Of a stretch of DNA of 11,696 bases, positions 2 to 11,696 are shown piece by piece. Source of the stretch: Pseudomonadota bacterium (lineage in GTDB: Bacteria > Pseudomonadota > Alphaproteobacteria > Rhizobiales > Kaistiaceae); assembly GCA_023433185.1 (NCBI GenBank), contig JAEZEN010000364.1, forward strand, positions 1 to 11,696, read 5' to 3'. Below the pieces are notes generated by a model. It was not told the origin of the DNA and did no database searches. It was given only the letters and a program-made list of their open reading frames with translations. Numbering within the stretch: position 1 is the stretch's first letter; every line of letters starts with the position of its first letter. The translations under genes were made by a program, and so were the position numbers.

Positions 2-253
2 CTCTCCCGAAAGCGCTTCTACCCCAGCGCGGGGCGACGCGACCGCCTCACCGGGCGGGCGACCGTGAGCTTCACGCTCAACGCCTCGGGGCGGGTGACG
101 GCGGCACGCATCGTGCGCTCCGCCGGATCGCGCATTCTCGACGATGCGGCGCTCGAGATGGTCCGGCGGGCCGCGCCCTACCCGCCGATCCCGCGCGGGC
201 TCGGCACGACCATCACCATCCAGGCGCCGATCGGCTTCGAGCTGCCGCGCTGA
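2..253 (+). CDS. TonB-family protein, C-terminal fragment (5' end outside window)
   Basis: The frame is open from the left edge to the TGA at 251-253 and gives the last 83 residues. It reads as a TonB C-terminal domain: an N-terminal YP-like element (KRFYPSA), then a beta strand ATVSFTLNASGRV, then a segment resembling the family's SSG..LD.AAL (SAGSRILDDAALEMV), then a proline-rich PYPPIP and a final strand ending in FELPR. TonB proteins carry energy from the inner-membrane ExbB/ExbD complex to outer-membrane receptors; this domain is the periplasmic part that contacts the receptor or acts in TonB-like paralogues. The GTG at 65 is internal to the domain and not a true start, because the YP element lies upstream of it. 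The gene ends 22 bp from the convergent dehydrogenase gene. The membrane anchor and proline-rich linker are outside the window, so a divergent TonB-domain protein cannot be excluded. Confidence 0.82.
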   Translation, partial: LSRKRFYPSAGRRDRLTGRATVSFTLNASGRVTAARIVRSAGSRILDDAALEMVRRAAPYPPIPRGLGTTITIQAPIGFELPR

Positions 254-275: not shown

Positions 276-1316
276 TCAGACGGCTTCCGCCCTGCCGCTC
301 GCGGCGGAGCGGTACATCGCGTCGAGCACCGCGACGGCGCGCGCGCCGACGATCCCGTCGGCCGGGTTCTCCACCGGCCTGCCGTGGCAGATGTCGACGA
401 AGACACGAAGCGGCGTCTCGCATTCATAGGCGCCGTCGCCGGGGGCGAGCGCGATCACCTCGTCGCGCCCGTCGCGGCGGCGGAGTTCGAGGCGCTCGCG
501 CTCGATGTCGAGGAGGAGCATGCCCTCGGTGCCGAAGATGCGGAGGTCGATCTGCACCGGACGGCCCTTCGGCAGCGTCGCCGCGCCCGAGACGGCGCCG
601 GTGGCGCCGCCCTCGAAGCGGACCGCCGCGGCGTCGTAGTAGTCGACCCCGGCCTTCGACTTGCCGGTCATGGCGAAGACCTCGGCCGGCGCCAGGTCGG
701 CGACGCGGAACATGAGACCGAGGGCGTGGACCAGCTGGCCCCAGCCGAAGCCGCCGGCCCGCTTCGGGTCGGCCCAGGTCGAGGCCGGCGGCCGGAACAT
801 CGCCCCCTCGGTCTCGACCATCGGCTCGCCGGCGAAGAGGTCGTCGAGGGCGTTGGCCATCTGGAGGACGACGTGCTCGATCCGGCCCACGCCGGCGGCA
901 AGCCGCCGCGCCTCCGCCGCGAAGGGGCGGAAGTTCCAGCCATAGGGGACGACGATCTGCCGATCCTTCTCCCGGGCCAGGGCAACCAGGGACCGGGCCT
1001 CGGCGGCGTCGGTGGTCAGCGGCTTCTCGACCAGCACATGGCAGCCTGTCTCGAGCGCCGCCCGGGCGTGCTCGAAGTGGACGACATGGGGCGAGGAGAT
1101 CACCACCCCGTCCATCGGCACGGCGTCGAGCATCGCCCGCCAGTCCTCGAAGGCCGCGGCGATCCCGAATGTCTCCGACACCGCGCGCAGTTCGTCCGCG
1201 CCCAGCCTGTTCACCGCCACCACCTCGCAGTCCGGCAGGGTCCGGAGCACCGGGATGTGGTTGACCACCGCCCACCAGCCGGCGCCGATGACCCCGATCC
1301 GCGCCTTCCGGTTCAT
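276..1316 (-). CDS. Gfo/Idh/MocA-family NAD(P)-dependent sugar dehydrogenase
   Basis: This 346-residue protein has the length and layout of the Gfo/Idh/MocA oxidoreductases, cytoplasmic enzymes that oxidise or reduce sugars, inositols and their acids with NAD(P). Residues 7-20 form the Rossmann glycine motif (GVIGAGWWAVVNH). The family signature EKP is at 97-99, with the likely catalytic Lys98. The C-terminal alpha/beta domain begins near residue 125 and contains the conserved GGFGWGQLVH segment, with His197 a probable active-site residue. The ATG overlaps the stop of the upstream regulator gene as ATGA, so the two are translationally coupled. As last gene of the transporter operon it is likely the first catabolic step for the imported compound. 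The substrate is not readable from sequence. The family call is secure. Confidence 0.93.
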   Translation of the reverse strand: MNRKARIGVIGAGWWAVVNHIPVLRTLPDCEVVAVNRLGADELRAVSETFGIAAAFEDWRAMLDAVPMDGVVISSPHVVHFEHARAALETGCHVLVEKPLTTDAAEARSLVALAREKDRQIVVPYGWNFRPFAAEARRLAAGVGRIEHVVLQMANALDDLFAGEPMVETEGAMFRPPASTWADPKRAGGFGWGQLVHALGLMFRVADLAPAEVFAMTGKSKAGVDYYDAAAVRFEGGATGAVSGAATLPKGRPVQIDLRIFGTEGMLLLDIERERLELRRRDGRDEVIALAPGDGAYECETPLRVFVDICHGRPVENPADGIVGARAVAVLDAMYRSAASGRAEAV

Positions 1317-2035
1317 TTCGCCCGCTCCATCGCTTGTCGTGTCGAGAGGTAGACGTTCTGCATGTGGGTCTCGGTCGCACGCTCGGCCCGGTCGGGATCG
1401 CGGTCGGCGAGGGCGGCCGCGATCGCGGCGTGGTCGGCCTGCGACTGGCGGAGCACGCCCGGCACCTCCGAGGCGATGCGCCGGTACTCGATGCCGAGCA
1501 CGTAGAGGGAATAGGAGACGCGGGCGAGAAACGGGTTCCGCGTGCTTTCCATGATCGTGCGGTGGAACTCGAGATCCGAGACGCGGAAGCCGATCGGGTC
1601 GTCGACCAGCCCCTCCTGGACTTTCACCATCGCCAGCAGCCGGTCGATGTCGGCGTCGCCGAGGCGCGCCGCCGCGAGCCGGGCGACGCGGCCGTCGACC
1701 ATCACCCGCGCCTCGTACAGGCCCTCGACATTGTCGACGTTGAGCGTGATCAGGAACTGGAGGGGACCGAGGATGTCGGCCGCGTCGAGCGAGGAGATGT
1801 AGGCGCCGCCGCCCTGCCGGGTCCGGACCACGCCGAGAATCTGGAGGCCGCGGAGCGCCTCGCGCACGCTCGGCCGGCTGACCTGCAGCATCTGCGACAG
1901 GTCGCGCTCGGTGGGCAGCTGGTCGCCGGGCTTGAGGTTGCCGGTCCGCACCAGATCGAGAACCTTCTTCGCCACCTGGTCGGCGACCGAATGCCGCTCG
2001 ACCGGCGACATCACCGGGGCGGCATCCGCGTTCAT
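1313..2035 (-). CDS. GntR-family transcriptional regulator, FadR subfamily (FCD domain)
   Basis: This 240-residue regulator has an N-terminal winged helix-turn-helix, roughly residues 15-82, with the GntR signature around LPTERDLSQML and SRPSVREALRGL and the wing RTRQGGGAYI. The C-terminal half is an all-helical FCD effector domain. Its metal-site pattern is visible: Asp154 and His158 (SDLEFH), His202 (ADHAAI) and His224 (ETHMQN). FadR-type regulators of this kind usually repress catabolic operons and are released by a carboxylated or sugar-acid ligand. The gene lies 67 bp after the permease stop; that gap shows no clear promoter or terminator. It ends in an ATGA overlap with the dehydrogenase. 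A FadR-like palindrome at 6109-6125 is its best candidate operator, implying autoregulation of the operon. Whether it represses or activates is inferred. Confidence 0.93.
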   Translation of the reverse strand: MNADAAPVMSPVERHSVADQVAKKVLDLVRTGNLKPGDQLPTERDLSQMLQVSRPSVREALRGLQILGVVRTRQGGGAYISSLDAADILGPLQFLITLNVDNVEGLYEARVMVDGRVARLAAARLGDADIDRLLAMVKVQEGLVDDPIGFRVSDLEFHRTIMESTRNPFLARVSYSLYVLGIEYRRIASEVPGVLRQSQADHAAIAAALADRDPDRAERATETHMQNVYLSTRQAMERAK

Positions 2036-2102
2036 GGCGGGCTGCCGATCGCCGTTGGATTGCGACCCCCTCGAGAGAACAGAGAGCAGGACAAGATCAT
2101 CC

Positions 2103-3092
2103 TTATTCTCCCAGCGCCCGCGTCCTGATCTGGTCGAGGCTGACGGCGAGCATCAGCACCACCCCCTTGGTCACGTCCTGCCAGAAGCTCGAGACGTCGT
2201 TGAGGGTCAGCCCGTTGTTGAGCGTACCCAGGATGAGGACGGCGAGCAGCGTGCCCCAGACGCTGCCGCGGCCGCCATAGAGGCTGGTGCCGCCGAGGAT
2301 GATGGCGGCGATCACGGTGAGGAGATGCGGGGCCGCCGCCGCCGGCGCGGCGGCGCCGAGCATGGCGGCGAGCATCAGCCCGGCCACGGCGCCGGAGACG
2401 CCGGAGAGGATGTAGAGCACCATCTGCACGCGCTCCACCGGCAGCCCGATCAGACGGCTCGCCTCCGGATTGCCGCCGACCGCATAGACGAAGCGGCCGA
2501 AGCGCGTCCGCCGCAGCACGATCGACAGCACGATGAAGACGATGATCATGAGGATCGGCGGGAACGGCACGCCGAGGATGCGCCCCTGGCCGATCCAGTT
2601 GAAGCCCGGCACCATGAGCGGCTTGGTCAGCCCGCCGGTCAGGATCAGCGCGGCGCCCGAGACGATCGACATCATGCCGAGGGTGACGATCAGCGGGTTG
2701 AGGCGCAGCCGCGTGCAGAACAGGCCGTTGACCGCGCCGATGAAGCCGCCGAGGAGGACCGCGAGGAGCGCGGCGATCCAGATGTTGACGCCCATGTCGG
2801 CATTGAGCACGGCGATCAGCACGCCGACCAGGCCGGCGATGGCCGCAACCGACAGGTCGAGCCCGCCGGCGATGATCAGCGGCGTGCCTGCCGCCGCCAT
2901 CAGCCCGATGAAGGCGATGTTCGAGCCGATCGACATCATGTTCCGCGTCGTCATGAAGAACGGCGAGAGCAGCGAGAAGACGACGAGCAGCAGGATGTAG
3001 AAGACGAAGAGCAGCACCACGCCCGACTCGGGGCGGCCGAGGAAGGTGAGGAACGGGCCACGTCCCGGTGTGGCGGCGGTGCGGTCGGTCAT
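2103..3092 (-). CDS. CUT2-family sugar ABC transporter permease (RbsC-like)
   Basis: The product is a very hydrophobic inner-membrane protein of the ribose/xylose/galactose permease family (BPD_transp_2). It has many membrane segments and the characteristic GGLDLSVAAIAGL loop early in the protein, comparable to GGIDLSVGS in RbsC. It would form the membrane channel, probably as a homodimer, that works with the adjacent ATPase and binding protein. I prefer the ATG at 3092 (329 residues), which lies 13 bp after the ATPase stop with a weak ACGGA ribosome site about 8 bp upstream. A GTG at 3116 is also open and would give 337 residues overlapping the ATPase gene by 11 bp. The TAA stop is 67 bp before the regulator gene. 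Family assignment is secure; substrate is unknown. Confidence 0.93.
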   Translation of the reverse strand: MTDRTAATPGRGPFLTFLGRPESGVVLLFVFYILLLVVFSLLSPFFMTTRNMMSIGSNIAFIGLMAAAGTPLIIAGGLDLSVAAIAGLVGVLIAVLNADMGVNIWIAALLAVLLGGFIGAVNGLFCTRLRLNPLIVTLGMMSIVSGAALILTGGLTKPLMVPGFNWIGQGRILGVPFPPILMIIVFIVLSIVLRRTRFGRFVYAVGGNPEASRLIGLPVERVQMVLYILSGVSGAVAGLMLAAMLGAAAPAAAAPHLLTVIAAIILGGTSLYGGRGSVWGTLLAVLILGTLNNGLTLNDVSSFWQDVTKGVVLMLAVSLDQIRTRALGE

Positions 3093-3105
3093 CGGCGGGA
3101 TCCGT

Positions 3106-4650
3106 TCATGCGGCACTGAAGGCGGGGTCGTTGGTGGTGGCGGCCATCAGCGCCGCCGGTGGCGTGCCCTTCGCGAAGCGGCCGACCACGCGACCGCGGT
3201 CGAGCACGAGCGAACGGTCGCTGATCCCCGCCACCTCCTCGACATCGGAGGAGAGGACGAGAACGGCGAGGCCGCGATCGGCGAGGGCGCGGAGTTCGAG
3301 ATAGAGTTCGCGGCGGGCGCCGACATCGACGCCGCGGGTCGGCTCCTCGAGAATGAGGAGCTTGACGGTGTCGACCAGCCAGCGCGCGACGCAGACCTTC
3401 TGCTGGTTGCCGCCCGAGAGGGTCCGCACGGTCTGCTCCGGCCCGCGGGTGCGGATGCCGAGAAGATCGATCCAGCGCCTGGCCTGCTCGGTCTCGGCCG
3501 CCTTCGAGACGAACATGCCGCGCACGTAGCGCTCCTGGAACGGGGCGACCATGTTCTCGCGCACCGTGAGGTCGCCGATGATGCCCTCGCGCTTCCGGTC
3601 GGCGGCGACGAAGCCGATGCCGCGCGCCTTGCCCACCCGGGCCGATTCCGGCCGGTAGGCGGCCCCCTGGACGAGGATCGTCCCGGCGGTGGCCGCACCC
3701 ATGGCGCCGTAGACGGCGCGGCCCAGGGTCTCGATGCCCGAGCCGATCAGACCGAAGACGCCGACGATCTCGGCCGCCCGCACCGTGAGGTCGACACCGT
3801 CGAGCTTGCCCGGCACCGACAGGGCCGAGACCGAGAGCACCTCGTCGCCATCCGTACCGGTGCGGGCGATGTCGTAGAGGTCGTCGGCGACCCGGCCGAG
3901 CATCGCGGCCAGCACCGCGCCATGCGAGGCGTCGCGCGTCTCGTAGAGACCGGCGTTCCGACCGTCGCGGAGCACGGCGATGCGGTCGGACACCTCGAAG
4001 ACCTCGCTCAGGTAGTGCGAGATGTAGATGACCGCGACCTGCTGGTCCCTGAGCCGGCCGATGATCCGGAAGATGAGCTTCGCCTCCTGCTCGGTCAGAG
4101 CGGCCGTCGGCTCGTCCATGACCAGCACACGCGCCTTGCCGGCGAGCGCCCGGGCGATCTCGACGATGCGCTGCTCGGCGACCGAGAGGCGTTTGACCAG
4201 CATGTCCGGGTCGATCGCGGCGAAGCCGAGCTGGTCGAGAAGGGCACGGGCGTTCTCGCGCATCGTGCGGTCGTCGACCATGGCGAAGCCGGGTCCGCGC
4301 TTCACCGGCAGGTCGGCAAGCGCGATGTTCTCGGCGACGGTCATGTCGCCCATCACCGAGATTTCCTGCGGCAGGAGGCGGATGCCGGCTGCCACCGCGG
4401 CCCGCGGATCGGGAAAGACGACGCCCTCGCCGTCGATGCGGACGGTGCCGGCATCGCGCGTGTAGACGCCGGTGAGGATCTTCACGAGCGTCGACTTGCC
4501 TGCGCCGTTCGAGCCGAGCAGCGCCATCACCTCGCCGGGCTGGACGACGAGATCCACGTCGGCGAGGACCGCGACGCCGCCGAACGACTTGCCGATGCCC
4601 CGCATCTCGAGGCGGGGGGTGGAGGGGGAACCCCCGGTTCCGACGGTCAC
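3106..4650 (-). CDS. CUT2-family sugar ABC transporter ATP-binding protein (RbsA/MglA-like, two NBDs)
   Basis: This 514-residue protein has two fused nucleotide-binding domains, as in RbsA, MglA and XylG, and energises sugar import. NBD1 is complete: Walker A at 46-54 (GSNGAGKST), Q-loop Gln95, signature LSVAEQ at 155-160, Walker B VLVMDE at 175-180 and His212. NBD2 has the degenerate Walker A usual for this family (GLIGSGIET, near 300-308), a signature LSGGNQQ at 411-417 and LLILEEPTRGVDVG at 431-444. In the latter, Glu435 takes the place of the usual Walker B Asp. The start is a GTG preceded by GGGAGG about 9 bp upstream. A 6-bp hairpin (4627-4641) covers codons 4-8 and might slow initiation. 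The gene lies 249 bp after the binding-protein gene, an unusually long gap inside such an operon. Confidence 0.95.
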   Translation of the reverse strand: MTVGTGGSPSTPRLEMRGIGKSFGGVAVLADVDLVVQPGEVMALLGSNGAGKSTLVKILTGVYTRDAGTVRIDGEGVVFPDPRAAVAAGIRLLPQEISVMGDMTVAENIALADLPVKRGPGFAMVDDRTMRENARALLDQLGFAAIDPDMLVKRLSVAEQRIVEIARALAGKARVLVMDEPTAALTEQEAKLIFRIIGRLRDQQVAVIYISHYLSEVFEVSDRIAVLRDGRNAGLYETRDASHGAVLAAMLGRVADDLYDIARTGTDGDEVLSVSALSVPGKLDGVDLTVRAAEIVGVFGLIGSGIETLGRAVYGAMGAATAGTILVQGAAYRPESARVGKARGIGFVAADRKREGIIGDLTVRENMVAPFQERYVRGMFVSKAAETEQARRWIDLLGIRTRGPEQTVRTLSGGNQQKVCVARWLVDTVKLLILEEPTRGVDVGARRELYLELRALADRGLAVLVLSSDVEEVAGISDRSLVLDRGRVVGRFAKGTPPAALMAATTNDPAFSAA

Positions 4651-4694
4651 CGTCTCACGCCTCCCTTCGAAGCCGAAGCCGGGACCGGCTCAAC

Positions 4695-4824
4695 CTGCTC
4701 ATCCCTGCGCACGCGGGGACCGCGGTGCTCAAGGCCACAGTCGGGAATCAGCGAAGGCAAATCGAAACTCGCTATGGCCATGCGTCCGTGACAGCGGGTC
4801 CCCGCGTGCGCGGGACCCAGCAGG
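4695..4824. repeat. Pair of inverted GC-rich palindromes (REP/BIME-like intergenic element)
   Basis: Two similar 29-bp units face each other at 4695-4723 and 4796-4824. The reverse complement of the right unit matches the left one at both ends of its core: CTGCT at the outer end and GCGCACGCGGGGACC at the inner side. Each unit is itself palindromic: the left folds as TCCCTGCG/CGCGGGGA (4702-4719) and the right as GGGTCCCCGCG/CGCGGGACCC with one bulged C (4796-4818). The 72-bp spacer is less GC-rich than the flanks. The arrangement, two head-to-head palindromes in an intergenic gap of an operon, resembles REP/BIME elements. The core resembles a type I-E CRISPR repeat, but there are no spacers or regular array. 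Copies elsewhere in the genome are predicted, not seen. Confidence 0.55.
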
Positions 4825-4859
4825 ACAGGGAGGGCGCGGCGCGCGGGGCGGGCCGCGGT

Positions 4860-4888
4860 GGCGGGGCCCTGGCGGTCAGGGTCCCGCC
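4860..4888 (-). terminator. Strong hairpin directly after the binding-protein stop (attenuator or mRNA stabiliser)
   Basis: Starting 11 bp downstream of the binding-protein stop codon is an inverted repeat with 12-bp arms (4860-4871 and 4877-4888) and a 5-nt loop. On the transcribed strand 11 of 12 positions pair, with one A/C mismatch, and nearly all pairs are G-C. No run of U follows, so it is not a classical intrinsic terminator. In binding-protein transport operons such a hairpin commonly protects the upstream mRNA from 3' exonucleases or causes partial termination, giving more binding protein than ATPase and permease. The structure is seen directly; the role is inferred. Confidence 0.55.
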
Positions 4889-4899
4889 ATGCCTCGACG

Positions 4900-6081
4900 C
4901 TACTCCGTCGGGATCAGGTCGAGAGCATCCGCCATGTCCGGCGACTGGCGGATGTCGGCGAGATGCGCGACGAACTTGTCCTGCGGGAAGTCCACCTCCA
5001 GGCCGAGCGCTTCGTCGCAGGGGAAGTCCGGGTAGTAGTTGCAGATGTTGCCCTTGTCGACCATGACGTGGGTCATCAGCACGGTGGGCGGCAGCTCGAT
5101 GCCGGCGAGTTCGGCCAGCGCCATCGGAACCAGGAAGTTGCCGTAGCGCTCGGGGAAGTAGCCGACGGAGGCGACGAAGGACGGCTCGGCCATCATCGTC
5201 GCCAGTTCGTCGGCGCCCATCCCGACGGCGATGAGGTCGGCCTCGCGTCCCGCCTGCTGCACCGCGCGGATGATTCCGGTGGTCGCCTGGTCGTTGATCG
5301 CCGTCGTCATGATCGGCACGCCGTCGGGGATCCGGCCCAGCACGTTGTTGGCCTGGGCGAAGCTCTCCTCGAGGGTGTTCTTGGTGTCGATGGTGATGAC
5401 GTGGCTCTCGGGAAAGCCCTCGACGGTGTCGAGGAAGCCGGCGAGCTGGCCACCGGTCCGCATCGCGGGCACCGCGCCCGACTGCGGCAGGTCGCCGAGG
5501 ATGAAGTAGCCCTCCTTGACCCTGTCGGCGCCGAACTTGTTCACGGCCGCCTGGCCGAGATAGACGCCGCCCATGTAGCCCGACTTCGGGTTGTTGGCGC
5601 CGAAGAAGGTCGCGCCCGGCATCGGAATGTCGATCGCGGTGACCTTGATGCCGGCATCGTTCATCTTCTGCATGATCGTCGCGCCGAAATTGGCGTCGGT
5701 CTGGAACTCGATCACATAGTCGACGTCGCGGTTGATGAAGCTCTCGGCGTTGGTCAGCGCCGTCGCACCGTCGAGATTGTTGTCGGCGATGACCAGTTCG
5801 ATCCCGGCCGCCTTCGCATTCGCGACGATGCCCTCCTCGACCTTGGCGCAGAAGCTGATGCCCCGGTCGAGATTGGCGAAGGCGAGCACGTACTTGTCGC
5901 CGTTCTTCGGCGGTGAGACCGCCATGGCGTCGACCACCGCCGCAGCGAGCGCCTCGGCCGAGAGCATCTCGCCCGAGAAGCCGGTCGGCGTGAAGCCATG
6001 GAAATCCTGGGCCGGGGCCACGGCCGTCATCAGCGCGAGCGCGGCGCCGGACAGGAGCATTCGGACTGCGGGTAAACGCAT
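4900..6081 (-). CDS. Periplasmic sugar-binding protein of the CUT2 ABC transporter (Peripla_BP_4 type)
   Basis: The 393-residue product starts with a Sec signal peptide: Arg at 2 and 7, a hydrophobic core at about 8-21 and an Ala-Pro-Ala signal-peptidase site ending at residue 24. The mature part has the two-lobed periplasmic binding-protein fold typical of ribose/galactose-type receptors. Recognisable elements are the first strand YVLAFANLDRGISF, an IADNNLDGATAL segment, a VDYVIEFQTD strand-loop and a MTTAINDQATTGIIRA hinge-side segment. It would capture the substrate in the periplasm and deliver it to the permease and ATPase encoded downstream. Two cysteines eight residues apart (Cys347 and Cys355) in an extended C-terminal tail could form a disulfide. 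The start is supported by a strong GGAGG (6091-6095) 9 bp before the ATG. It is the first gene of the operon, just downstream of the FadR-like palindrome. Confidence 0.94.
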   Translation of the reverse strand: MRLPAVRMLLSGAALALMTAVAPAQDFHGFTPTGFSGEMLSAEALAAAVVDAMAVSPPKNGDKYVLAFANLDRGISFCAKVEEGIVANAKAAGIELVIADNNLDGATALTNAESFINRDVDYVIEFQTDANFGATIMQKMNDAGIKVTAIDIPMPGATFFGANNPKSGYMGGVYLGQAAVNKFGADRVKEGYFILGDLPQSGAVPAMRTGGQLAGFLDTVEGFPESHVITIDTKNTLEESFAQANNVLGRIPDGVPIMTTAINDQATTGIIRAVQQAGREADLIAVGMGADELATMMAEPSFVASVGYFPERYGNFLVPMALAELAGIELPPTVLMTHVMVDKGNICNYYPDFPCDEALGLEVDFPQDKFVAHLADIRQSPDMADALDLIPTE

Positions 6082-6108
6082 GGATTTCTTCCTCCCAAGT
6101 GCGACCTG

Positions 6109-6125
6109 AATTGGTCAGGCCAATT
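6109..6125. promoter_or_regulatory. Candidate FadR/GntR operator palindrome upstream of the sugar operon
   Basis: The 17-bp site AATTGGTCAGGCCAATT is a perfect inverted repeat in its outer six bases (AATTGG/CCAATT). The inner TTGGTCAGGCCAA differs at one base from the symmetrical TTGGTC-N-GACCAA. Operators of FadR-subfamily GntR proteins typically carry TGGT...ACCA half-sites. The site begins 28 bp upstream of the binding-protein ATG and 14 bp beyond its ribosome site, a good place for a repressor. The operon encodes one FadR-type regulator, so it is the natural partner. The palindrome is seen; the binding is inferred. Confidence 0.6.
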
Positions 6126-6136
6126 TGATTTGCTTC

Positions 6137-6166
6137 ACCTTAGTGCGGTCGCTTGGGCCTTGCCAA
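6137..6166 (-). promoter_or_regulatory. Possible sigma-70-like promoter for the sugar-uptake operon
   Basis: Reading the minus strand, TTGGCA (complement of 6161-6166) is followed after 18 bp by TAAGGT (complement of 6137-6142). The -35 element is a reasonable match and the -10 element weak. A start site about 7 bp further on would fall just before the candidate operator at 6109-6125, so a repressor bound there would block early elongation or initiation. The geometry is sensible but the base match alone is not strong evidence. Confidence 0.3.
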
Positions 6167-6311
6167 GAGGATTCGCCACCGCAGCGTGGCGCGCGCTCCG
6201 GGCGAAGAGCCGCCAACCCGCCATGATTGTGTCGATGGACGGGAGACTCCGCACCAAAAGGCCCCTCGCGCGCCTCAAAATCATCAAGGACAGCAATTAG
6301 AGAGAGCGAAC

Positions 6312-6340
6312 TTGTTGTTCGCCGCGGCCTTTGGTAACGT
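6312..6340 (+). promoter_or_regulatory. Possible promoter for the Tat-exported protein gene
   Basis: TTGTTG at 6312-6317 and TAACGT at 6335-6340 are separated by 17 bp, within an A/T-rich patch. The -35 is fair and the -10 poor; TTTATCT just downstream is another possible -10. Transcription would start about 70 bp before the ATG at 6418. This is a weak call based on spacing and composition. An EcfG-type stress promoter was looked for and not found at correct spacing. Confidence 0.28.
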
Positions 6341-6417
6341 TTTATCTCTATTGTGAGGCACCAATCGCGTCGAACGGCTCGAACCCAGTAACTGCCAGTT
6401 CCCCACGGAGAACCGTA

Positions 6418-6849
6418 ATGGACTCGACCAAGGAAACGAAAGTCATGCGTACCGAAAAGGAAATGGCGCAGAGCCGCCGCAGCTTCCTTCGCCTCGGCGC
6501 GCTCGGCGCTGCCGCCGTGATCGCGGCCGGCGTCCTCCCCGGTGGCCAGGCACGCGCCGAGACGGCGACCCGGACGGCCAAGTCGGTGCGTTCCAGCGGC
6601 GAGGTCGGCTCCGTGACCGACGGCAAGGCGACCCGCAGCGCGCGCAGGATGCGCAGCATGGGCGAGATGGGTGAGAAGGCCGAAGGCGGCGCCTCGACCC
6701 GCAGCACGCGCTCCATGCAGGTCCAGCGCTCGATGAAGGCTGAGAAGAGCGCGAGCGGCACCGGCGGCAACCGCTCGGCCTCGACCCGCAAGATGGGCAC
6801 CCGTTCGGCGCAGCGTTCCATGAAGGCGACGAAGGCGATGAAGGGCTGA
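6418..6849 (+). CDS. Tat-exported small basic low-complexity protein, unknown function
   Basis: This 143-residue protein matches no family I recognise. Residues 19-25 (SRRSFLR) are a textbook twin-arginine motif, followed by a hydrophobic stretch and an Ala-Arg-Ala cleavage site ending at 47, so it should be exported by the Tat system. The mature 96 residues are odd: 13 Arg and 9 Lys against 7 acidic residues, 8 Met, and the rest mostly Ser, Thr, Ala and Gly. There is no Leu, Ile, Phe, Tyr, Trp, Cys, His or Pro. Short repeats occur, notably QRSMKA at 103-108 and 132-137 and several TRS/STR units. It is probably disordered. The ATG at 6418 is supported by GGAG 7 bp upstream. It lies 75 bp before the ligase gene on the same strand, so co-transcription with the biosynthetic genes is possible but unproven. 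Confidence 0.8.
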   Translation: MDSTKETKVMRTEKEMAQSRRSFLRLGALGAAAVIAAGVLPGGQARAETATRTAKSVRSSGEVGSVTDGKATRSARRMRSMGEMGEKAEGGASTRSTRSMQVQRSMKAEKSASGTGGNRSASTRKMGTRSAQRSMKATKAMKG

Positions 6850-6858
6850 CGCCCTTCA
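6839..6858 (+). terminator. Hairpin spanning the stop codon of the Tat-exported protein gene
   Basis: TGAAGGGC (6839-6846) and GCCCTTCA (6851-6858) form a perfect 8-bp stem. The 4-nt loop TGAC contains the TGA stop. A second weaker hairpin, CCGCC/GGCGG with a 5-nt loop, follows at 6869-6883. Neither is followed by a T-run, so full intrinsic termination is doubtful. The pair may cause partial termination or stabilise the upstream transcript, separating expression of the small protein from the ligase and later genes. Confidence 0.4.
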
Positions 6859-6924
6859 CCTGAAGAGCCCGCCCCTTCGGCGGATCATCCTTCGCGAATA
6901 CCGGAATATTGACGCGGGTGGACC

Positions 6925-8328
6925 GTGAATCCCTTGCTTGATGCCGCACTCGATTCGGCGGTGGCAGAGATGGATTTGCGGTCCGCCCGCGCTCCCTTTC
7001 CGGCGCCGCTTGCGCTGCTGCGCGAGCGTGTCGCCTCGGCGATGCGGGACGTGCCGTTCTACGCCGATCTCTACCGGCCGTTCGGGAGGCCGCCTGACGA
7101 CCCCGCCGCGTTTCTGGCCTGGTTCGCCGAACTGCCCGTCATCAGCCGGACCGACTTCGAGGACGTGAGGGACGAGGAGCGGGTGAGCCGCGCCTACGCC
7201 GACGCGCCGCTCGTCCGCAAGCAGACCAGCGGCAGCACGGGCATCCCTTTCGTCCTGTTCATCGACGAGCGTGTCGCCTCGTTCCGCAGCTGGCGCTTCC
7301 GCAAGCCCCACTTCGCCGCCGGCGAGACCGCGCCCGACACGCTCGAGTTCCTCTTTCCCGAACGCTTCCGCCGCGACCGGCAGGTCCGCGTCGTGGCGAC
7401 CAGGGCCGCGACCGGCGCAACGGCCGGCGAGGGCGCCCGCAGGACCCGGACGGAGAAGTCGTATTCGACCCTGACCGACGCCCTGAAGGCGCCGGAGGCG
7501 ATGTTCGCCGACCTCGCCGCCAAGAAGCCGCGAACCCTGGCCGGCTATGCCAGCTCGATCGTCGGGCTCGCCGCGTTCATGGCCGCCGAAGGCCGCAGCC
7601 TGCCCTCGGTGAAACGCATCTGGACGACCTCCGAAATGCTCACTCCGGAAGGCCGGGAGGCGATCCGCGACGCCTTCGGCTTCGAGGCCCGGGAAGCCTA
7701 TGCCAGCGTCGAGTTCGGCTTCATGGGCTGGCAGGAGGAGCCGGGCGGCGCCTACCGGCTCGAAACCGACCGGCTTGTCTTTGAAGGCGTCTCCCTCGCA
7801 TCCGGCCGCGCCGCGCCGCCCGGCGAGGACTGCCGCGTCGTCATCTCGGATCTCCTCAACGACGCAACGCCCCTCATCCGCTACGAGATCGGCGATGTCG
7901 CCGTGATGGCGGAGCCGACGGATGACGCTCCGGCGTTTCATGGCGCGATCGCCGAGCTGCGCGGCAAGACCAACGATTCGATCCGCGACGCGGCGGGCCG
8001 GCGCATCGAGCCTTTCGCGCTGCTCGGCCACCTCAAGGAGACGCTGGGCGCCGCCCAGTACCGCCTGGTCTGCGTCGAGCCCGGCCTCTTCGTGCTCCAG
8101 TACCGTCCCGCGCGGAGCGCCGAGGTGCGGCTCGAGGCGGCGCTCGCCGGACTTCGCCGGATCGTCGGCGAGCCGATCCGCGTCGTGGCGCAGAAGGTGC
8201 CCCGGATCGAGCGGGAAACCTCCGGCAAACTCAGGCCCATCGTCGATCTGAGCGCCATCGCCGGCGAGGGCCGCGCACGACTGCTTTCCGACCTCCAGCT
8301 CACCGAGCTTCACGACATCGACGCCTGA
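6925..8328 (+). CDS. PaaK/CapK-like adenylate-forming ligase (phenylacetate-CoA ligase family)
   Basis: The 467-residue product belongs to the PaaK/CapK/coenzyme-F390-synthetase branch of AMP-forming ligases, which activate a carboxylate as an acyl-adenylate. Visible motifs are the Ser/Thr/Gly-rich ATP loop QTSGSTGIP (100-108), the segment AYASVEFGFMG (258-268) at the adenine/substrate site, PLIRYEIGD (316-324) and the C-terminal swinging-domain motif ETSGK with the probable catalytic Lys435. The N-terminus PFYADLYR (44-51) is also typical. The GTG at 6925 is the first possible start after an in-frame stop at 6910-6912; its ribosome site is weak. It heads the run of biosynthetic genes, followed by a carrier protein, so it may load an acyl group on that carrier or release a product as an adenylate. 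The family is secure; the acid substrate is unknown. Confidence 0.88.
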   Translation: MNPLLDAALDSAVAEMDLRSARAPFPAPLALLRERVASAMRDVPFYADLYRPFGRPPDDPAAFLAWFAELPVISRTDFEDVRDEERVSRAYADAPLVRKQTSGSTGIPFVLFIDERVASFRSWRFRKPHFAAGETAPDTLEFLFPERFRRDRQVRVVATRAATGATAGEGARRTRTEKSYSTLTDALKAPEAMFADLAAKKPRTLAGYASSIVGLAAFMAAEGRSLPSVKRIWTTSEMLTPEGREAIRDAFGFEAREAYASVEFGFMGWQEEPGGAYRLETDRLVFEGVSLASGRAAPPGEDCRVVISDLLNDATPLIRYEIGDVAVMAEPTDDAPAFHGAIAELRGKTNDSIRDAAGRRIEPFALLGHLKETLGAAQYRLVCVEPGLFVLQYRPARSAEVRLEAALAGLRRIVGEPIRVVAQKVPRIERETSGKLRPIVDLSAIAGEGRARLLSDLQLTELHDIDA

Positions 8329-8397
8329 CCCGCGAGCCCCGTCCGGGACGCCCGCATCCACGAGTGAGACCGAGCCTTGGACCAGGACGCGAGGAAG

Positions 8398-8757
8398 ATG
8401 AGAGGCGCGCGGCACCGCGGCCAGACCGGCGCGTCGGCGAAACCCGCCGCCACCCGGAAGGCCATGCACGAACCCGCCGACGCCCCTGCCGCCGGACCGG
8501 CCGCCACCGCCCTCGCGGCGGTGATCGCGGAGGTGCTGCCCCGCCACGACCCGGCTGCGCCGCCACCCGAGACGGCCGAGCTCTACGCCGACCTGTTCAT
8601 CGATTCGCGGCGTTTCCTGATGATCATCCGCGGGCTCGAGAGGACCCTCGGCGTCGAGATCGACGACGAGGACCTGCTGGGGGTCGACCTCATCACCTAT
8701 GGCGACCTGCTGCGCTTCGTCGGCCAGGTCGCCGCAAAGAACGGGCCAGGGGCATGA
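8398..8757 (+). CDS. Stand-alone acyl/peptidyl carrier protein
   Basis: The C-terminal 80 or so residues have the shape of a phosphopantetheine carrier protein. After helix I (ATALAAVIAEVL), the segment ELYADLFIDSRRFLMIIRGLE corresponds to the family's L..LGLDSL....L...LE, followed by GVEIDDEDL. Ser70 of the Asp-Ser-Arg motif is the probable phosphopantetheinylation site; Arg after this Ser instead of Leu or Met is unusual. It would tether an acyl or aminoacyl intermediate for the neighbouring enzymes. The start is uncertain. ATG 8398 has AGGA about 10 bp upstream and gives 119 residues with a basic N-terminal extension; ATG 8464 would give a more typical 97 residues; TTG 8377 is also open. 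Strong third-position G/C continues upstream of 8464, favouring a longer form. Its stop overlaps the next gene's start as ATGA. Confidence 0.8.
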   Translation: MRGARHRGQTGASAKPAATRKAMHEPADAPAAGPAATALAAVIAEVLPRHDPAAPPPETAELYADLFIDSRRFLMIIRGLERTLGVEIDDEDLLGVDLITYGDLLRFVGQVAAKNGPGA

Positions 8758-10157
8758 ACGACATGGCGTCGCCGACCGGGACGATGGCGGGCGTGGCCAC
8801 CTGGTGCAACTTCCTCCACGACTTCCCCGACTACTACGAGGAATCGACCGCCACTCCCGACCATTTCGCCGATGCCGTCGGGGTCAACGTGCTGCCGCAG
8901 CAGCCGCTCTCGCTGATGAAGCAGTCGAACGACACGGCGAAGGCGGATGTCGCTATTCCCCCGGACGTTCAGGCAATCTACGCGACCTACCGCCCGACGC
9001 TGCTGCGCCGGGCCCATCGGCTCGAGGAACGACTCGGCACCACGGCCCGCATCTATTTCAAGTACGAGGGCGCCAACGTCTCGGGCAGCCACAAGCTCAA
9101 CTCGGCCATCGCGCAGGCCTACTACTACAAGAAGGCAGGCGTGAAGCACCTCATCACCGGCACCGGCGCCGGCCAGTGGGGGACCGCGCTCGCCTATGCC
9201 TGCAAGCAGTTCGGCCTCCGCTGCACCGTCTTCATGGTCGGCGTCAGCTACCGGCAGAAGCCGCAGCGGCCGCGCATCGTCGAGCTCTTCGGCGGCGAAA
9301 TCCACGAGAGCCCGAGCCCGCTGACGCGGACCGGCCGCGAGGCCATGGAGCGCGACCCCGACCGCATCGGCTCGCTCGCGGTCGCCACCGGGGAGGCCAT
9401 CGAGATGGCCCGCGAACTGAAGGAGTCGGCACGTTTCGCCGTCGGCAGCGGCGAGACCTGCGTGCTCCTCCACCAGACCGTGATCGGCAACGAGGCGGTC
9501 GGCCAGATGGCGGCGCTGGGCGACTTTCCCGACTACGTCGTCGCCTGCATGGGAGCGGGCAGCAACTTCGCCGGCGTCGGCATGCCGTTTCTCCGGGCCG
9601 CGAAGGCGATGGGCCGGAAGACCGAGCTCGTCGCCGCCGAGCCGGTCGCCTGCCCGAAACTGACCCGCGGCGACTATCTCTTCGACATCAACGACTTCTC
9701 CGGCACGACGCCGGTGACCCGGATGTACACGCTCGGCAACCGCTTCCTCGCGCCCGGCATCCATGCCGGGGGGCTGCGCTACCACGGCACCTCGGCGTTC
9801 CTGTCCGCCCTCTACGCCCATGGCGGCTTCTCGGCCCGCGCCGTGCCGCAGGCCGGGGCGCTCGGCGCCGGAATCCTCTTCGCCGACTGCGAAGGCATCA
9901 TCCCGGCGCCCGAATCGGCGCATGCGATCGCCGCGGCCATCGACATCGCCCGCGCGCACAAGGAGAGCGCGGCCCCCGCCATCCTCATCAACATCAGCGG
10001 GCACGGCCTGTTCGACCTCGCCGGCTACGAGGAGGCGAGGAACGGGACGCTCCCCAGCGACCTGCCGGACGAGGCGATGATCGCGACGAGCCTCGCGGCG
10101 GCGCGCGCCCGGAACGCCGAGTTCGCCAGGGCGATCACCGCCGATGTCCGGGCCTGA
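8754..10157 (+). CDS. TrpB2-like PLP-dependent enzyme lacking the tryptophan-synthase catalytic Glu
   Basis: This 467-residue protein resembles the TrpB2/TrpB-related PLP enzymes across its length. Examples are YRPTLLRRAHRLEERL (79-94), the PLP-lysine motif GSHKLNSA with Lys114, GAGQWGTALAYA (138-149), SYRQKP, LLHQTVIG, the phosphate loop GAGSNFAG (267-274), HAGGLRYHG (337-345), PAPESAHAI and NISGHG (413-418) around the pyridine-ring-binding Ser. One key residue differs. TrpB proteins have Glu in the ETGAGQ motif (Glu109 in Salmonella), which activates indole; here the motif is GTGAGQ with Gly136. It therefore probably does beta-elimination or beta-replacement with another nucleophile. No trpA or other tryptophan gene is nearby. 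It begins in an ATGA overlap with the carrier gene and ends 14 bp inside the dehydrogenase gene, so it belongs to the same biosynthetic operon. Confidence 0.9.
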   Translation: MNDMASPTGTMAGVATWCNFLHDFPDYYEESTATPDHFADAVGVNVLPQQPLSLMKQSNDTAKADVAIPPDVQAIYATYRPTLLRRAHRLEERLGTTARIYFKYEGANVSGSHKLNSAIAQAYYYKKAGVKHLITGTGAGQWGTALAYACKQFGLRCTVFMVGVSYRQKPQRPRIVELFGGEIHESPSPLTRTGREAMERDPDRIGSLAVATGEAIEMARELKESARFAVGSGETCVLLHQTVIGNEAVGQMAALGDFPDYVVACMGAGSNFAGVGMPFLRAAKAMGRKTELVAAEPVACPKLTRGDYLFDINDFSGTTPVTRMYTLGNRFLAPGIHAGGLRYHGTSAFLSALYAHGGFSARAVPQAGALGAGILFADCEGIIPAPESAHAIAAAIDIARAHKESAAPAILINISGHGLFDLAGYEEARNGTLPSDLPDEAMIATSLAAARARNAEFARAITADVRA

Positions 10158-11262
10158 TCCGGACGCCATCCTCTACGAGTCTCCGATCCACGAGCGGGGC
10201 CGGAAGCTCGGAGCGGAACTCGCCACCGCCTTCGCGTCGGCGGACCACCTCTTCTTCCGCGAGATGGCGCGCTTCGCGCCGCTCCAGCCTCTGCTCGCGG
10301 GCGGCATCGGCGACCCCGATGCCAGCATGGACGCGCTCGTCGGGCTCGGCGAGGGCTGCCCCAACGGAGCGATGCTCCTCTCCTTCGGCGCCCATGCCTT
10401 CGCCGTCGCCCCGGCGCTCGCCCGCTTCGCCTCCGACGAGATCAAGACCGCGTATCTCGCCCAGCTCGCCTCGGGGACGATGATCGGCGCCTTCGCCGCG
10501 ACCGAGGCTGCGGCGGGTTCCGACGTGATGGCGATGGAGACCCGGTTCGCCGAGACCCGGACCGGCTACGTGCTCAACGGCGAGAAGGCGTGGATCACCA
10601 ATGCCACGCAGGCCGACGTCCTTGTCGTCTTCGCCACCAAGGACGTGCGGCTCCACTCGCGCGGCATCAGCGCCTTTCTCGTCGAGCGCGGCGACTCTGG
10701 CGTTTCGACCGTGGCGGCGACGGAGCCGGGCCATGCCGTCCCCCCCCTCGGCAGCGTCACCCTCGCCGACGTCCATGTCGGCCGCGACCGCCTGATCGGC
10801 CGCATCAACGGCGGCGCGCTGGTGTTCCGCAATTCGATCGCCCAGGAACGCATCCTCCTCTCCGCGTTTCTCGTCGGCTCGATCCGCCGGGGGCTGATGC
10901 GCTCGATCGCCCACGCCAACCGCCGACAGCAATACGGCGTTCCGATCGGCGCCAACCAGGCGGTCAGCGGCCGGATCGTCGACACCTACCGCCGCTATGC
11001 GACCACCCGTCTCCTCCTCCAGTACGGCATCGGCCGCCTCGCGCTCGGCACCGCCACGGAGTCCGACGCGAGCCTGGTCAAGCTCCAGTGTTCGGAGGCC
11101 GCGGTCGAAAGCGCGCTCGATGCCTTCCGCATCCACGGCGCCCGCGGCTACGAGACCGCCGGGGCCGAGGGCCTCCTCGACGTCCTTTCGAGCGTCACCT
11201 ATTCCGGGACCTCCGACCTCCAGAAGGTGATCATCGCCGCGGCTCTCGGTCTGTCGGCATGA
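10144..11262 (+). CDS. Acyl-CoA-dehydrogenase-like flavoenzyme (probable carrier-bound substrate)
   Basis: The 372-residue product has the full acyl-CoA dehydrogenase layout: helical N-domain, FAD-binding middle domain with AATEAAAGSDVMAM (118-131) and GYVLNGEKAWITNA (141-154), and helical C-domain with RRQQYGVPIG (260-269) and GARGYET (332-338). These FAD enzymes make an alpha-beta double bond in a thioester. Medium-chain-type enzymes have the catalytic Glu in a YEGTS motif; here it is YSGTS, with Ser354. Glu235 in AQERILL lies where isovaleryl-CoA dehydrogenase has its base (LDLERL), so Glu235 is the likely base. Enzymes oxidising aminoacyl groups on carrier proteins, such as the PltE type, belong to this superfamily. 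With a carrier and an adenylation enzyme on either side of it in the operon, a carrier-bound aminoacyl substrate is a good inference. It overlaps the upstream gene by 14 bp and the downstream one by ATGA. Confidence 0.9.
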   Translation: MSGPDPDAILYESPIHERGRKLGAELATAFASADHLFFREMARFAPLQPLLAGGIGDPDASMDALVGLGEGCPNGAMLLSFGAHAFAVAPALARFASDEIKTAYLAQLASGTMIGAFAATEAAAGSDVMAMETRFAETRTGYVLNGEKAWITNATQADVLVVFATKDVRLHSRGISAFLVERGDSGVSTVAATEPGHAVPPLGSVTLADVHVGRDRLIGRINGGALVFRNSIAQERILLSAFLVGSIRRGLMRSIAHANRRQQYGVPIGANQAVSGRIVDTYRRYATTRLLLQYGIGRLALGTATESDASLVKLQCSEAAVESALDAFRIHGARGYETAGAEGLLDVLSSVTYSGTSDLQKVIIAAALGLSA

Positions 11263-11696
11263 GCATCCGGCACCTCGCCGCCTACCTCCTCGCCGCGGCG
11301 GAGGCCGGGCCCGCCCGCGTCGCCTACCGCGATGCCGCCGGCACCCGGAGCTACCGCGAGTACCGCGACGAGAGCCTCCGCGTCGCAGCGCTCCTCGCCG
11401 AGTCCGGCGTGGCGGCCGGCGATCGGGTGGCGATCGCGCTCCCCAAGGGCTTCGCGCTCTACGTCACGATCCATGCGGCCCTCTTCCGGAACGCCTGCTA
11501 TGTGCCGGTCGACTACACGACGCCGGTCGAGCGCGGCCGGGCGATCCTTGACGATGCCGGGGCGCGCGTGCTGGTGACCACCGCCCGCAGCCTCGCGCGC
11601 CTCCTCGGCGCGGCGACGGCCGACAGCCGCGAGACTGACGCCATCGTCGTCGCCGTGCTCGGACGCGACGCCCAGGGCGGGCTCGCCGTCGCCGCG
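11259..11696 (+). CDS. NRPS-type amino-acid adenylation enzyme, N-terminal part (3' end outside window)
   Basis: The frame starts at the ATG overlapping the dehydrogenase stop and stays open to the right edge, giving 146 residues. It reads as the start of an AMP-binding/adenylation domain. It has VAYRDAAGTRSYREYRDESLR (core A1-like), ALLAESGVAAGDRVAIALPKG and FRNACYVPVDYTTPVERGRAILDDAGARVLVT, which matches the NRPS A2 core motif with its aK.G.aYvPlD..P..R pattern. Such stand-alone enzymes activate an amino acid and load it on a separate carrier protein; the one encoded at 8398-8757 is the obvious partner. The specificity-determining residues lie beyond the window, so the amino acid cannot be predicted. 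It may continue into further NRPS domains. Confidence 0.85.
   Translation, partial: MSIRHLAAYLLAAAEAGPARVAYRDAAGTRSYREYRDESLRVAALLAESGVAAGDRVAIALPKGFALYVTIHAALFRNACYVPVDYTTPVERGRAILDDAGARVLVTTARSLARLLGAATADSRETDAIVVAVLGRDAQGGLAVAA

What the first reader, a model, noticed from the sequence alone, without database searches (positions are those of the whole stretch)
6925..11696. Compact, apparently undescribed biosynthetic cluster: two adenylating enzymes, one carrier, a TrpB-like enzyme and a carrier-type dehydrogenase
Five same-strand genes, four of them chained by 4- or 14-bp overlaps, combine a PaaK/CapK-like ligase, a stand-alone carrier protein, a TrpB2-like enzyme, an acyl-CoA-dehydrogenase-like enzyme and an NRPS-type adenylation enzyme. 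Adenylation enzyme, carrier and dehydrogenase match the logic of prolyl-to-pyrrolyl carrier chemistry (PltF/PltL/PltE). Adding a TrpB-like PLP enzyme and a second ligase is a combination I do not recognise from any known pathway. A pathway that loads an amino acid, oxidises it on the carrier and then joins it to a PLP-derived aminoacrylate or a nucleophile is conceivable.
Basis: partly seen in the sequence, partly recalled or inferred. Interest (0 to 1): 0.78.

Follow-up and report, generated by a model that had tools for sequence, protein, structure and literature searches.

The report
Carrier-based cluster with altered TrpB
A small bacterial gene set, kept in the same order in two phyla, appears to load a proline-like amino acid onto a carrier protein, oxidise it, and work with a tryptophan-synthase relative that has lost a key catalytic residue; every copy examined starts with a gene for a repetitive, positively charged protein, and our literature searches found no described pathway with this set.

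Summary
In detail: five + strand genes (ligase, carrier, TrpB-like, acyl-CoA-dehydrogenase-like, truncated adenylation enzyme) with overlaps of 4, 14 and 4 bp. In 6 of 6 fetched relatives (two Bauldia MAGs, four Myxococcota) the order is the same, with ligase and carrier fused in Myxococcota. A PF00756 esterase follows in 6 of 6, a phosphopantetheinyl transferase in both Bauldia.

The prolyl-to-pyrrolyl analogy is supported for the dehydrogenase (nearest solved relatives are prolyl-carrier dehydrogenases; catalytic Glu kept) and, in relatives, for the adenylation pocket (7-8 of 10 positions as in a prodigiosin-type enzyme; one constant Leu-to-Trp change). New here: the TrpB-like enzyme has Gly where TrpB has its catalytic Glu. 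Nine of nine Gly-type loci examined, two of them unrelated Streptomyces clusters, have a carrier gene adjacent; none of 60 Glu-type loci does. A Glu-to-Gly change was engineered in laboratory TrpB to use phenols. I propose a carrier-linked, non-indole aryl-alanine pathway. The product and the basic protein's role are unproven.

The parts
6418..6849 (+). Small basic repeat protein (called SBR here), 143 aa, Tat-type signal followed by R/S/K/M-rich repeats, mature part pI 11.8
   Evidence: 70-79% identical genes directly upstream of the ligase in L001, L002; 4 Myxococcota loci carry a different but equally basic repetitive gene at the same place; third-position excess of changes in this frame; predicted disordered
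6925..8328 (+). PaaK-like adenylate-forming ligase (LIG), GTG start
   Evidence: PaaK fold; 36-75% identical in 6 relatives
8377..8757 (+). Stand-alone phosphopantetheine carrier protein (CAR), start uncertain (TTG 8377, ATG 8398 or ATG 8464); Ser kept in LFIDS
   Evidence: PF00550; start codons; fused to LIG in Myxococcota
8754..10157 (+). TrpB2-type PLP enzyme (TRPB); Lys114 kept, Gly136 in place of the TrpB catalytic Glu
10144..11262 (+). Acyl-CoA-dehydrogenase-like flavoenzyme (ACAD), nearest to prolyl-carrier dehydrogenases, catalytic Glu position kept
11259..11696 (+). NRPS-type adenylation enzyme (ADEN), cut by the window end; specificity pocket not in the window
   Evidence: PF00501; full-length relatives in L001, L002, L003, L004, L010, L011

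Best explanation
A compact thiotemplated biosynthetic operon: SBR-LIG-CAR-TRPB-ACAD-ADEN, followed in relatives by an esterase (HYD) and, in Bauldia, a phosphopantetheinyl transferase (PPT). Proposed working: PPT (or a host enzyme) arms CAR; ADEN activates proline or a close analogue and loads CAR; ACAD oxidises the carrier-bound ring to a pyrrole or partly oxidised ring; TRPB forms aminoacrylate from serine (or phosphoserine) and couples it to an electron-rich non-indole ring, probably the carrier-bound one, giving a heteroaryl-alanine; LIG activates a second carboxylate (possibly that amino acid) for the same carrier or for amide/ester formation; HYD releases or transfers the product. SBR is a ribosomally made acceptor, scaffold or polyanion-binding partner. 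Shown here: gene identities, conserved order and co-occurrence, conserved catalytic residues, the Gly-for-Glu change and its link with carrier genes, the prolyl-like pocket of relatives. Inferred: every chemical step, the product, and SBR's role.
For: Same order in 6 of 6 fetched relatives from two phyla despite 36-65% identity of the compared proteins between the phyla. ACAD's four best solved relatives are prolyl-carrier dehydrogenases (162-176 bits) ahead of isovaleryl-CoA dehydrogenase (132); [quoted passage not shown] ADEN's best single-domain solved relatives are L-proline-carrier ligases 7thn and 6o6e (217 and 208 bits; the multi-domain entries LgrA, 308 for two domains, and 8xjz, 280 for two stretches, rank above). 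Pocket DLFY[V/I]AWV[C/F]K, 7-8 of 10 positions as in the prodigiosin-type enzyme of L089, DLFYLALVCK. TRPB: Gly in all 7 cluster loci and the 2 Streptomyces plasmid loci, each beside a carrier gene; Glu in 60 other loci, none with an adjacent carrier. [quoted passage not shown] Strong SBR matches occur in the cluster-bearing genomes only: 4 of 195 Myxococcota (two more at E about 1e-3), 2 of 28 genomes of the Bauldia family.
Against: ADEN's pocket differs from the prolyl-type enzymes by a constant Trp at the position recalled as GrsA 322, so proline itself may not be the substrate. The window holds only the first 146 residues of ADEN. Gly-type TrpB2 proteins are far more numerous than this cluster (115 of the 120 best hits), and the neighbourhood of nearly all is unseen; in the tree the cluster's own TrpB copies are not one clade, so the Bauldia and Myxococcota copies may have joined the cluster, or lost company, separately. 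There is no direct evidence that TRPB acts on a carrier-bound substrate. The two SBR families are not detectably homologous, so their equivalence rests on position and make-up. TRPB scores below the TIGR01415 cut-off (456.6 against 518.85) and ACAD below those for RedW and PigA.
Confidence: 0.45

Rival explanations
1. TRPB makes a free non-canonical amino acid from serine and a soluble nucleophile, and ADEN (prolyl-like pocket with Trp) loads that amino acid; ACAD then desaturates it on the carrier. Proline and pyrrole are not involved.
For: The constant Leu-to-Trp pocket change; the Gly-type TrpB2 of S. angustmyceticus stands beside an AMP-ligase and a carrier with no acyl-CoA dehydrogenase among the 16 listed features.
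Against: 7-8 of 10 pocket positions and the dehydrogenase both point to a prolyl-type ring.
Confidence: 0.25
2. The pathway decorates a protein: SBR is a multi-site substrate, and LIG/CAR/HYD transfer the carrier-made acyl group to its repeats, a RiPP-like or protein-modification system.
For: SBR heads the operon in 7 of 7 loci, is repetitive, and gave no strong match in searched genomes without the cluster; the Bauldia-like kind is predicted disordered and has a Tat-type signal, the export route recalled for proteins finished in the cytoplasm.
Against: The conserved repeat residues differ: Arg/Ser/Met in the Bauldia-like family, Arg/Gln/Lys in the myxobacterial one; no known RiPP enzyme was seen among the cluster genes; highly basic disordered proteins often just bind polyanions (recalled).
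Confidence: 0.15
3. SBR is only a DNA-, envelope- or carrier-binding helper (or a neighbour), and the cluster makes an ordinary pyrrole-type small molecule in which TRPB is a tailoring or supply enzyme.
For: pI about 12 and low predicted order; thiotemplated pyrrole modules of adenylating enzyme, carrier and dehydrogenase are well known (PMC10849742 section 8).
Against: Co-occurrence and fixed position in two phyla.
Confidence: 0.25
4. Ordinary metabolism: spare tryptophan synthase plus phenylacetate or fatty-acid enzymes that lie together by chance.
For: General annotations of the single genes.
Against: Conserved order in two phyla, loss of the TrpB Glu, carrier and PPT genes.
Confidence: 0.02

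Closest known systems
Thiotemplated pyrrole modules (PltF/PltL/PltE, RedM/RedO/RedW, Bmp, AnaB/AnaC, ChmHIJ; gene names partly recalled)
   Same: Stand-alone prolyl-type adenylation enzyme, carrier, FAD dehydrogenase with catalytic Glu; similar pocket letters
   Different: Pocket Leu to Trp; extra TrpB-like enzyme, PaaK-like ligase, esterase and basic repeat protein; carrier fused to the ligase in Myxococcota
TrpB2 (tryptophan synthase beta 2, e.g. 6hte; also 6hul)
   Same: Same family (NF009057 above cut-off), PLP Lys and GAGQWG loop kept
   Different: Catalytic Glu replaced by Gly; next to a carrier gene
Engineered TrpB variants such as Tm9D8 E105G / TmTyrS6
   Same: Glu-to-Gly change at the corresponding position (by motif; that E105 is this Glu is recalled)
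   Different: Laboratory TrpB variant acting on free phenols/naphthols; here a natural TrpB2 in a carrier-based cluster
PaaK-family AMP ligases of natural product pathways (NatL2, AjiA1, ClxA)
   Same: Same fold by structure search
   Different: 15-21% identity in those alignments; fused to a carrier in Myxococcota; substrate unknown
Streptomyces plasmid clusters L073 and L076
   Same: Gly-type TrpB2 directly beside a carrier gene, AMP-ligase nearby
   Different: No LIG-type ligase among the 18 proteins tested; other partner genes

Membership tests
Thiotemplated pyrrole module | Adenylation enzyme with prolyl pocket | tested here: inconclusive
   Relatives only (window copy truncated): DLFY[V/I]AWV[C/F]K; 8 of 10 positions as in L089 for L001, L002, L010 and 7 of 10 for L003, L004, L011; Leu to Trp in 6 of 6 (pocket positions recalled)
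Thiotemplated pyrrole module | Carrier with phosphopantetheine Ser | tested here: met
   PF00550 and LFIDS motif
Thiotemplated pyrrole module | Dehydrogenase of the prolyl-carrier type with catalytic Glu | tested here: met
   Best four solved relatives, Glu aligned; but below the NF045652 cut-off (227.1 against 650 bits) and the NF053553 cut-off (254.4 against 500)
Thiotemplated pyrrole module | Carrier-bound proline oxidised to pyrrole | not testable with these tools
   Needs enzyme assay
TrpB2 | Family profile | tested here: met
   NF009057 525.5 against cut-off 366; TIGR01415 456.6, below its 518.85
TrpB2 | PLP lysine | tested here: met
   GSHKLN, Lys114
TrpB2 | Catalytic Glu in ETGAGQ | tested here: not met
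   Gly136
PaaK-like ligases | Fold | tested here: met
PaaK-like ligases | Curated family profile | tested here: not met
   No Pfam family at 0.001; NCBIfam best 66.8 against cut-off 300
RiPP cluster | Ribosomal precursor with repeats | tested here: inconclusive
   SBR is small, repetitive and cluster-bound; modification not testable
RiPP cluster | Known RiPP-modifying enzyme | tested here: not met
   None among the cluster genes scanned against Pfam and NCBIfam

The most novel reading that the evidence does not exclude
Gly-type TrpB2 enzymes are a natural class of carrier-dependent aryl- or heteroaryl-alanine synthases, nature's version of the laboratory Glu-to-Gly TrpB, and in this cluster the carrier-made product is placed on, or carried by, the repeats of a ribosomally made basic protein that, in the Bauldia-like hosts, is exported through Tat.
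Probability: 0.1. Interest if true: 0.92.

Novelty: new variant of a known kind. Interest (0 to 1): 0.72.

Why it matters
It links three things not seen linked in the searches made here: a natural TrpB2 group that lost the catalytic Glu, carrier-protein chemistry, and a conserved basic repeat protein. If TRPB works on carrier-bound rings it would give new enzymes for non-canonical amino acids, and the small size of the operon makes the whole pathway testable in vitro.

Tried and rejected
Rejected: ordinary tryptophan or phenylacetate metabolism (conserved carrier and order, PPT in Bauldia). Rejected: SBR as a chance Arg-rich ORF of GC-rich DNA (homologous in relatives, third-position excess of changes in 7 of 7 pairs, co-occurrence with the cluster). 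Tried without yield: homology between the two SBR families (hhalign probability 0.2%); Rfam on the window (none); promoter and terminator scan of 6050-8400 (nothing above shuffles); literature on pocket codes (0 papers each) and on TrpB-like enzymes with carriers or subfamilies (no paper on this gene set by title and abstract start among the rows listed; one search listed 15 of 62). Papers: PMC10849742 passages and section 8; PMC12909874 and PMC13360519 passages only; all others search listings only. A plasmid search with the ligase found 29 records, all under 60% identity (20 listed, 21-31%). No relative of the ligase was sought in viral or metagenome contigs. A tree did not join the cluster's Bauldia and Myxococcota TrpB copies into one clade.

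Limits of the counts: Glu/Gly was read in 26 of 44 non-cluster TrpB matches, 29 of 35, and 7 of 13 plasmid records. The carrier profile was built from 13 carriers that include those of the nine Gly-type loci, so their detection there is by construction; independent evidence is Pfam for the window and L004 and record annotation for L073 and L076. The genome scan needs short exact peptide patterns and did not return the loci in G097 and G132 found later.
Full report
The window and its genes. The window is 70% G+C and holds a minus-strand sugar-type ABC transporter operon (276-6081) and, on the plus strand, the set under study. No whole genome is held for the window. Its transporter genes are 85-90% identical to those of Bauldia locus L002, so the window is from a close relative of Bauldia (placed in Kaistiaceae by the tree output).

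Conservation. A search of about 5.8 billion proteins with the ligase (7,997 candidates scored) gave 53 relatives at 55-84% identity among the 120 listed, and 16 proteins at 35-39% that carry a carrier domain on the same chain. A pattern scan of 84,980 species genomes gave four loci: two Bauldia MAGs (L001, L002), Myxococcus dinghuensis (L003) and M. eversor (L004). Whole-genome searches added two unnamed Myxococcota genomes (4 of 195 in the phylum; L010, L011) and showed rarity elsewhere: 1 of 397 sampled genomes of the order of L001 and 2 of 28 of its family. In all six loci the order is LIG-CAR-TRPB-ACAD-ADEN, with LIG and CAR fused in the four Myxococcota. Identity of the window to the Myxococcota is 36-38% (LIG), 63-65% (TRPB) and 41-44% (ACAD); for ADEN, L002 against Myxococcota is 40-43%.

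A PF00756 esterase follows ADEN in 6 of 6 loci. A phosphopantetheinyl transferase (4PPT_N and ACPS domains) follows it in both Bauldia loci; comparison with the Bauldia protein found none in the four Myxococcota loci. Directly before LIG, on the same strand, lies a small basic protein gene: window 6418-6849, 75 bp before LIG, 70-79% identical to the L001 and L002 copies. The four Myxococcota loci have at the same place a gene for a protein of about 150 aa, 52-74% identical to one another. Both kinds have pI about 12 and no Cys, and repeats seen by eye in the alignments (two DNA repeat families in the window copy). The Bauldia-like kind has a Tat-like signal, with profile matches below curated cut-offs, and repeats of the TRSARKMRSMGE type; the myxobacterial kind has no evident signal and four copies of a motif x[QR][VL]R[QR][LF]xAxK[QS]. 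The two are not detectably homologous. Changes between orthologues are most frequent at third codon positions in seven of seven pairs. The window's protein is predicted disordered (mean pLDDT 52.6, pTM 0.15); the myxobacterial one was not folded. Strong matches occur only in the cluster-bearing genomes: 4 of 195 Myxococcota (two further matches at E about 1e-3 are near chance) and 2 of 28 of the Bauldia family. Of 16 relatives in the protein collection, five have a contig length equal to that of a ligase or TrpB relative.

Loading and oxidation. ACAD is nearest among solved structures to prolyl-carrier dehydrogenases (5zw0 176 bits, 6af6 173, 6cxt 170, 4irn 162), ahead of isovaleryl-CoA dehydrogenase (132). 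6cxt is Bmp3 (PMC10849742, passage). The Glu that is Ala in 6af6 is kept; [quoted passage not shown] ACAD is still below the curated cut-offs for RedW and PigA. The full ADEN of L002 has L-proline-carrier ligases as best single-domain solved relatives (217 and 208 bits; GrsA 185); the multi-domain LgrA entries (308, two domains) and 8xjz (280, two stretches) rank above. Its pocket, read from alignment A7 at positions recalled from GrsA, is DLFYVAWVCK in L001 and L002, DLFYIAWVCK in L010, DLFYVAWVFK in L003 and L011 and DLFYIAWVFK in L004. Enzymes from prodigiosin-like plasmid clusters give DLFYAALACK (Thioclava, L087) and DLFYLALVCK (Methylocystis, L089), and Brasilonema L088, beside an ACAD and a carrier, gives DLLYLALVCK (that the first two are prodigiosin-type is my reading of their gene lists). 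So proline or a close analogue is likely, with a constant Leu-to-Trp change.

The TrpB-like enzyme. It is a TrpB2 (NF009057 525.5 bits; TIGR01415 below cut-off; solved relatives 6hul, 6hte). The PLP lysine is kept, but Glu of ETGAGQ is Gly136. Of the 120 best protein hits 115 have Gly, two Ala, one Ser, one Glu, and one lacks the motif; these are the nearest relatives, not a random sample. In Myxococcota 26 of 26 examined other TrpB2 loci have Glu, in Pseudomonadota 29 of 29, and of seven fetched plasmid records five have Glu and two Gly. In a tree of 63 proteins the 22 Glu rows form one side of a fully supported branch; the Gly-type rows, with one Ala and one Ser row, are on the other side, and the Bauldia-like and Myxococcota cluster copies fall in separate parts of it among metagenomic sequences of unseen neighbourhood. 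Both plasmid Gly-type genes, in S. angustmyceticus and Streptomyces sp. NBC_00704, stand directly beside a carrier gene with an AMP-ligase nearby. Scoring carriers in 69 loci: 9 of 9 Gly-type loci have an adjacent carrier gene or fused carrier domain; of 60 Glu-type loci one (L075) has a carrier more than 2 kb away and none an adjacent one; 55 of the 60 offer only about 1.5 kb of flank or less. [quoted passage not shown] the original paper was not held). The natural Gly-type enzymes may therefore use nucleophiles other than indole.

The ligase. No Pfam match, weak NCBIfam and sequence matches to PaaK-type enzymes, but the TSGS, ND..PL.RY and SGK.RP segments are conserved, some positions with rare exceptions, in the 38 aligned rows, and the predicted structure matches PaaK1/PaaK2, BT_0428, NatL2, AjiA1 and ClxA. 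Fusion to the carrier in Myxococcota suggests that LIG loads, or works at, that carrier. With one carrier and two adenylating enzymes, either the carrier is charged twice in turn or one enzyme makes an amide or ester; this is open.

Judgement. The gene set is real, conserved and not described in the papers that the searches listed. The prolyl-like loading and oxidation module is a known kind. The Gly-type TrpB2 beside carriers and the basic repeat protein make it a new variant, possibly more. I put about 0.45 on the full working model, higher (about 0.65) on the prolyl-like module alone, and about 0.1 on the boldest reading.

Noticed in passing
window 276-6081, minus strand: Sugar-type ABC transporter operon (Gfo/Idh oxidoreductase, GntR/FCD regulator, permease, ATPase, binding protein), divergent from the cluster and 85-90% identical in L002. 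None of these genes matched in the fetched Myxococcota loci.
   Followed up: partly
L073 7616-12961 (S. angustmyceticus plasmid p1): Carrier, Gly-type TrpB2, FAD/NAD(P)-binding protein and AMP-ligase in a row, with pabB, class IV aminotransferase and isochorismatase genes nearby: a different cluster that also pairs Gly-type TrpB2 with a carrier.
   Followed up: partly
L076 340-15266 (Streptomyces sp. NBC_00704 plasmid): Large cluster with a Gly-type TrpB2 beside a phosphopantetheine-binding protein, an AMP-ligase, a type III PLP enzyme, two acyl-CoA dehydrogenases and a phosphopantetheinyl transferase; its hypothetical 424-aa protein holds a carrier-like domain.
   Followed up: partly
P0121-P0240: Gly-type TrpB2 is a broad group (names include Acidobacteriota, Thermoanaerobaculia, Marinomonas, Streptosporangiaceae) whose neighbourhoods could not be fetched here.
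   Followed up: no
L003 9439-9894 and other myxobacterial copies: The myxobacterial basic protein holds stretches such as KATKQLATK and SARKS that, from memory, resemble histone H3 tail motifs; probably convergence of basic low-complexity sequence.
   Followed up: no
P0089, P0090: Distant ligase relatives of about 735 aa with a glycosyltransferase domain (PF00535) on the same chain.
   Followed up: no
window 2-253, plus strand: End of an ORF that by eye resembles a TonB C-terminal domain.
   Followed up: no
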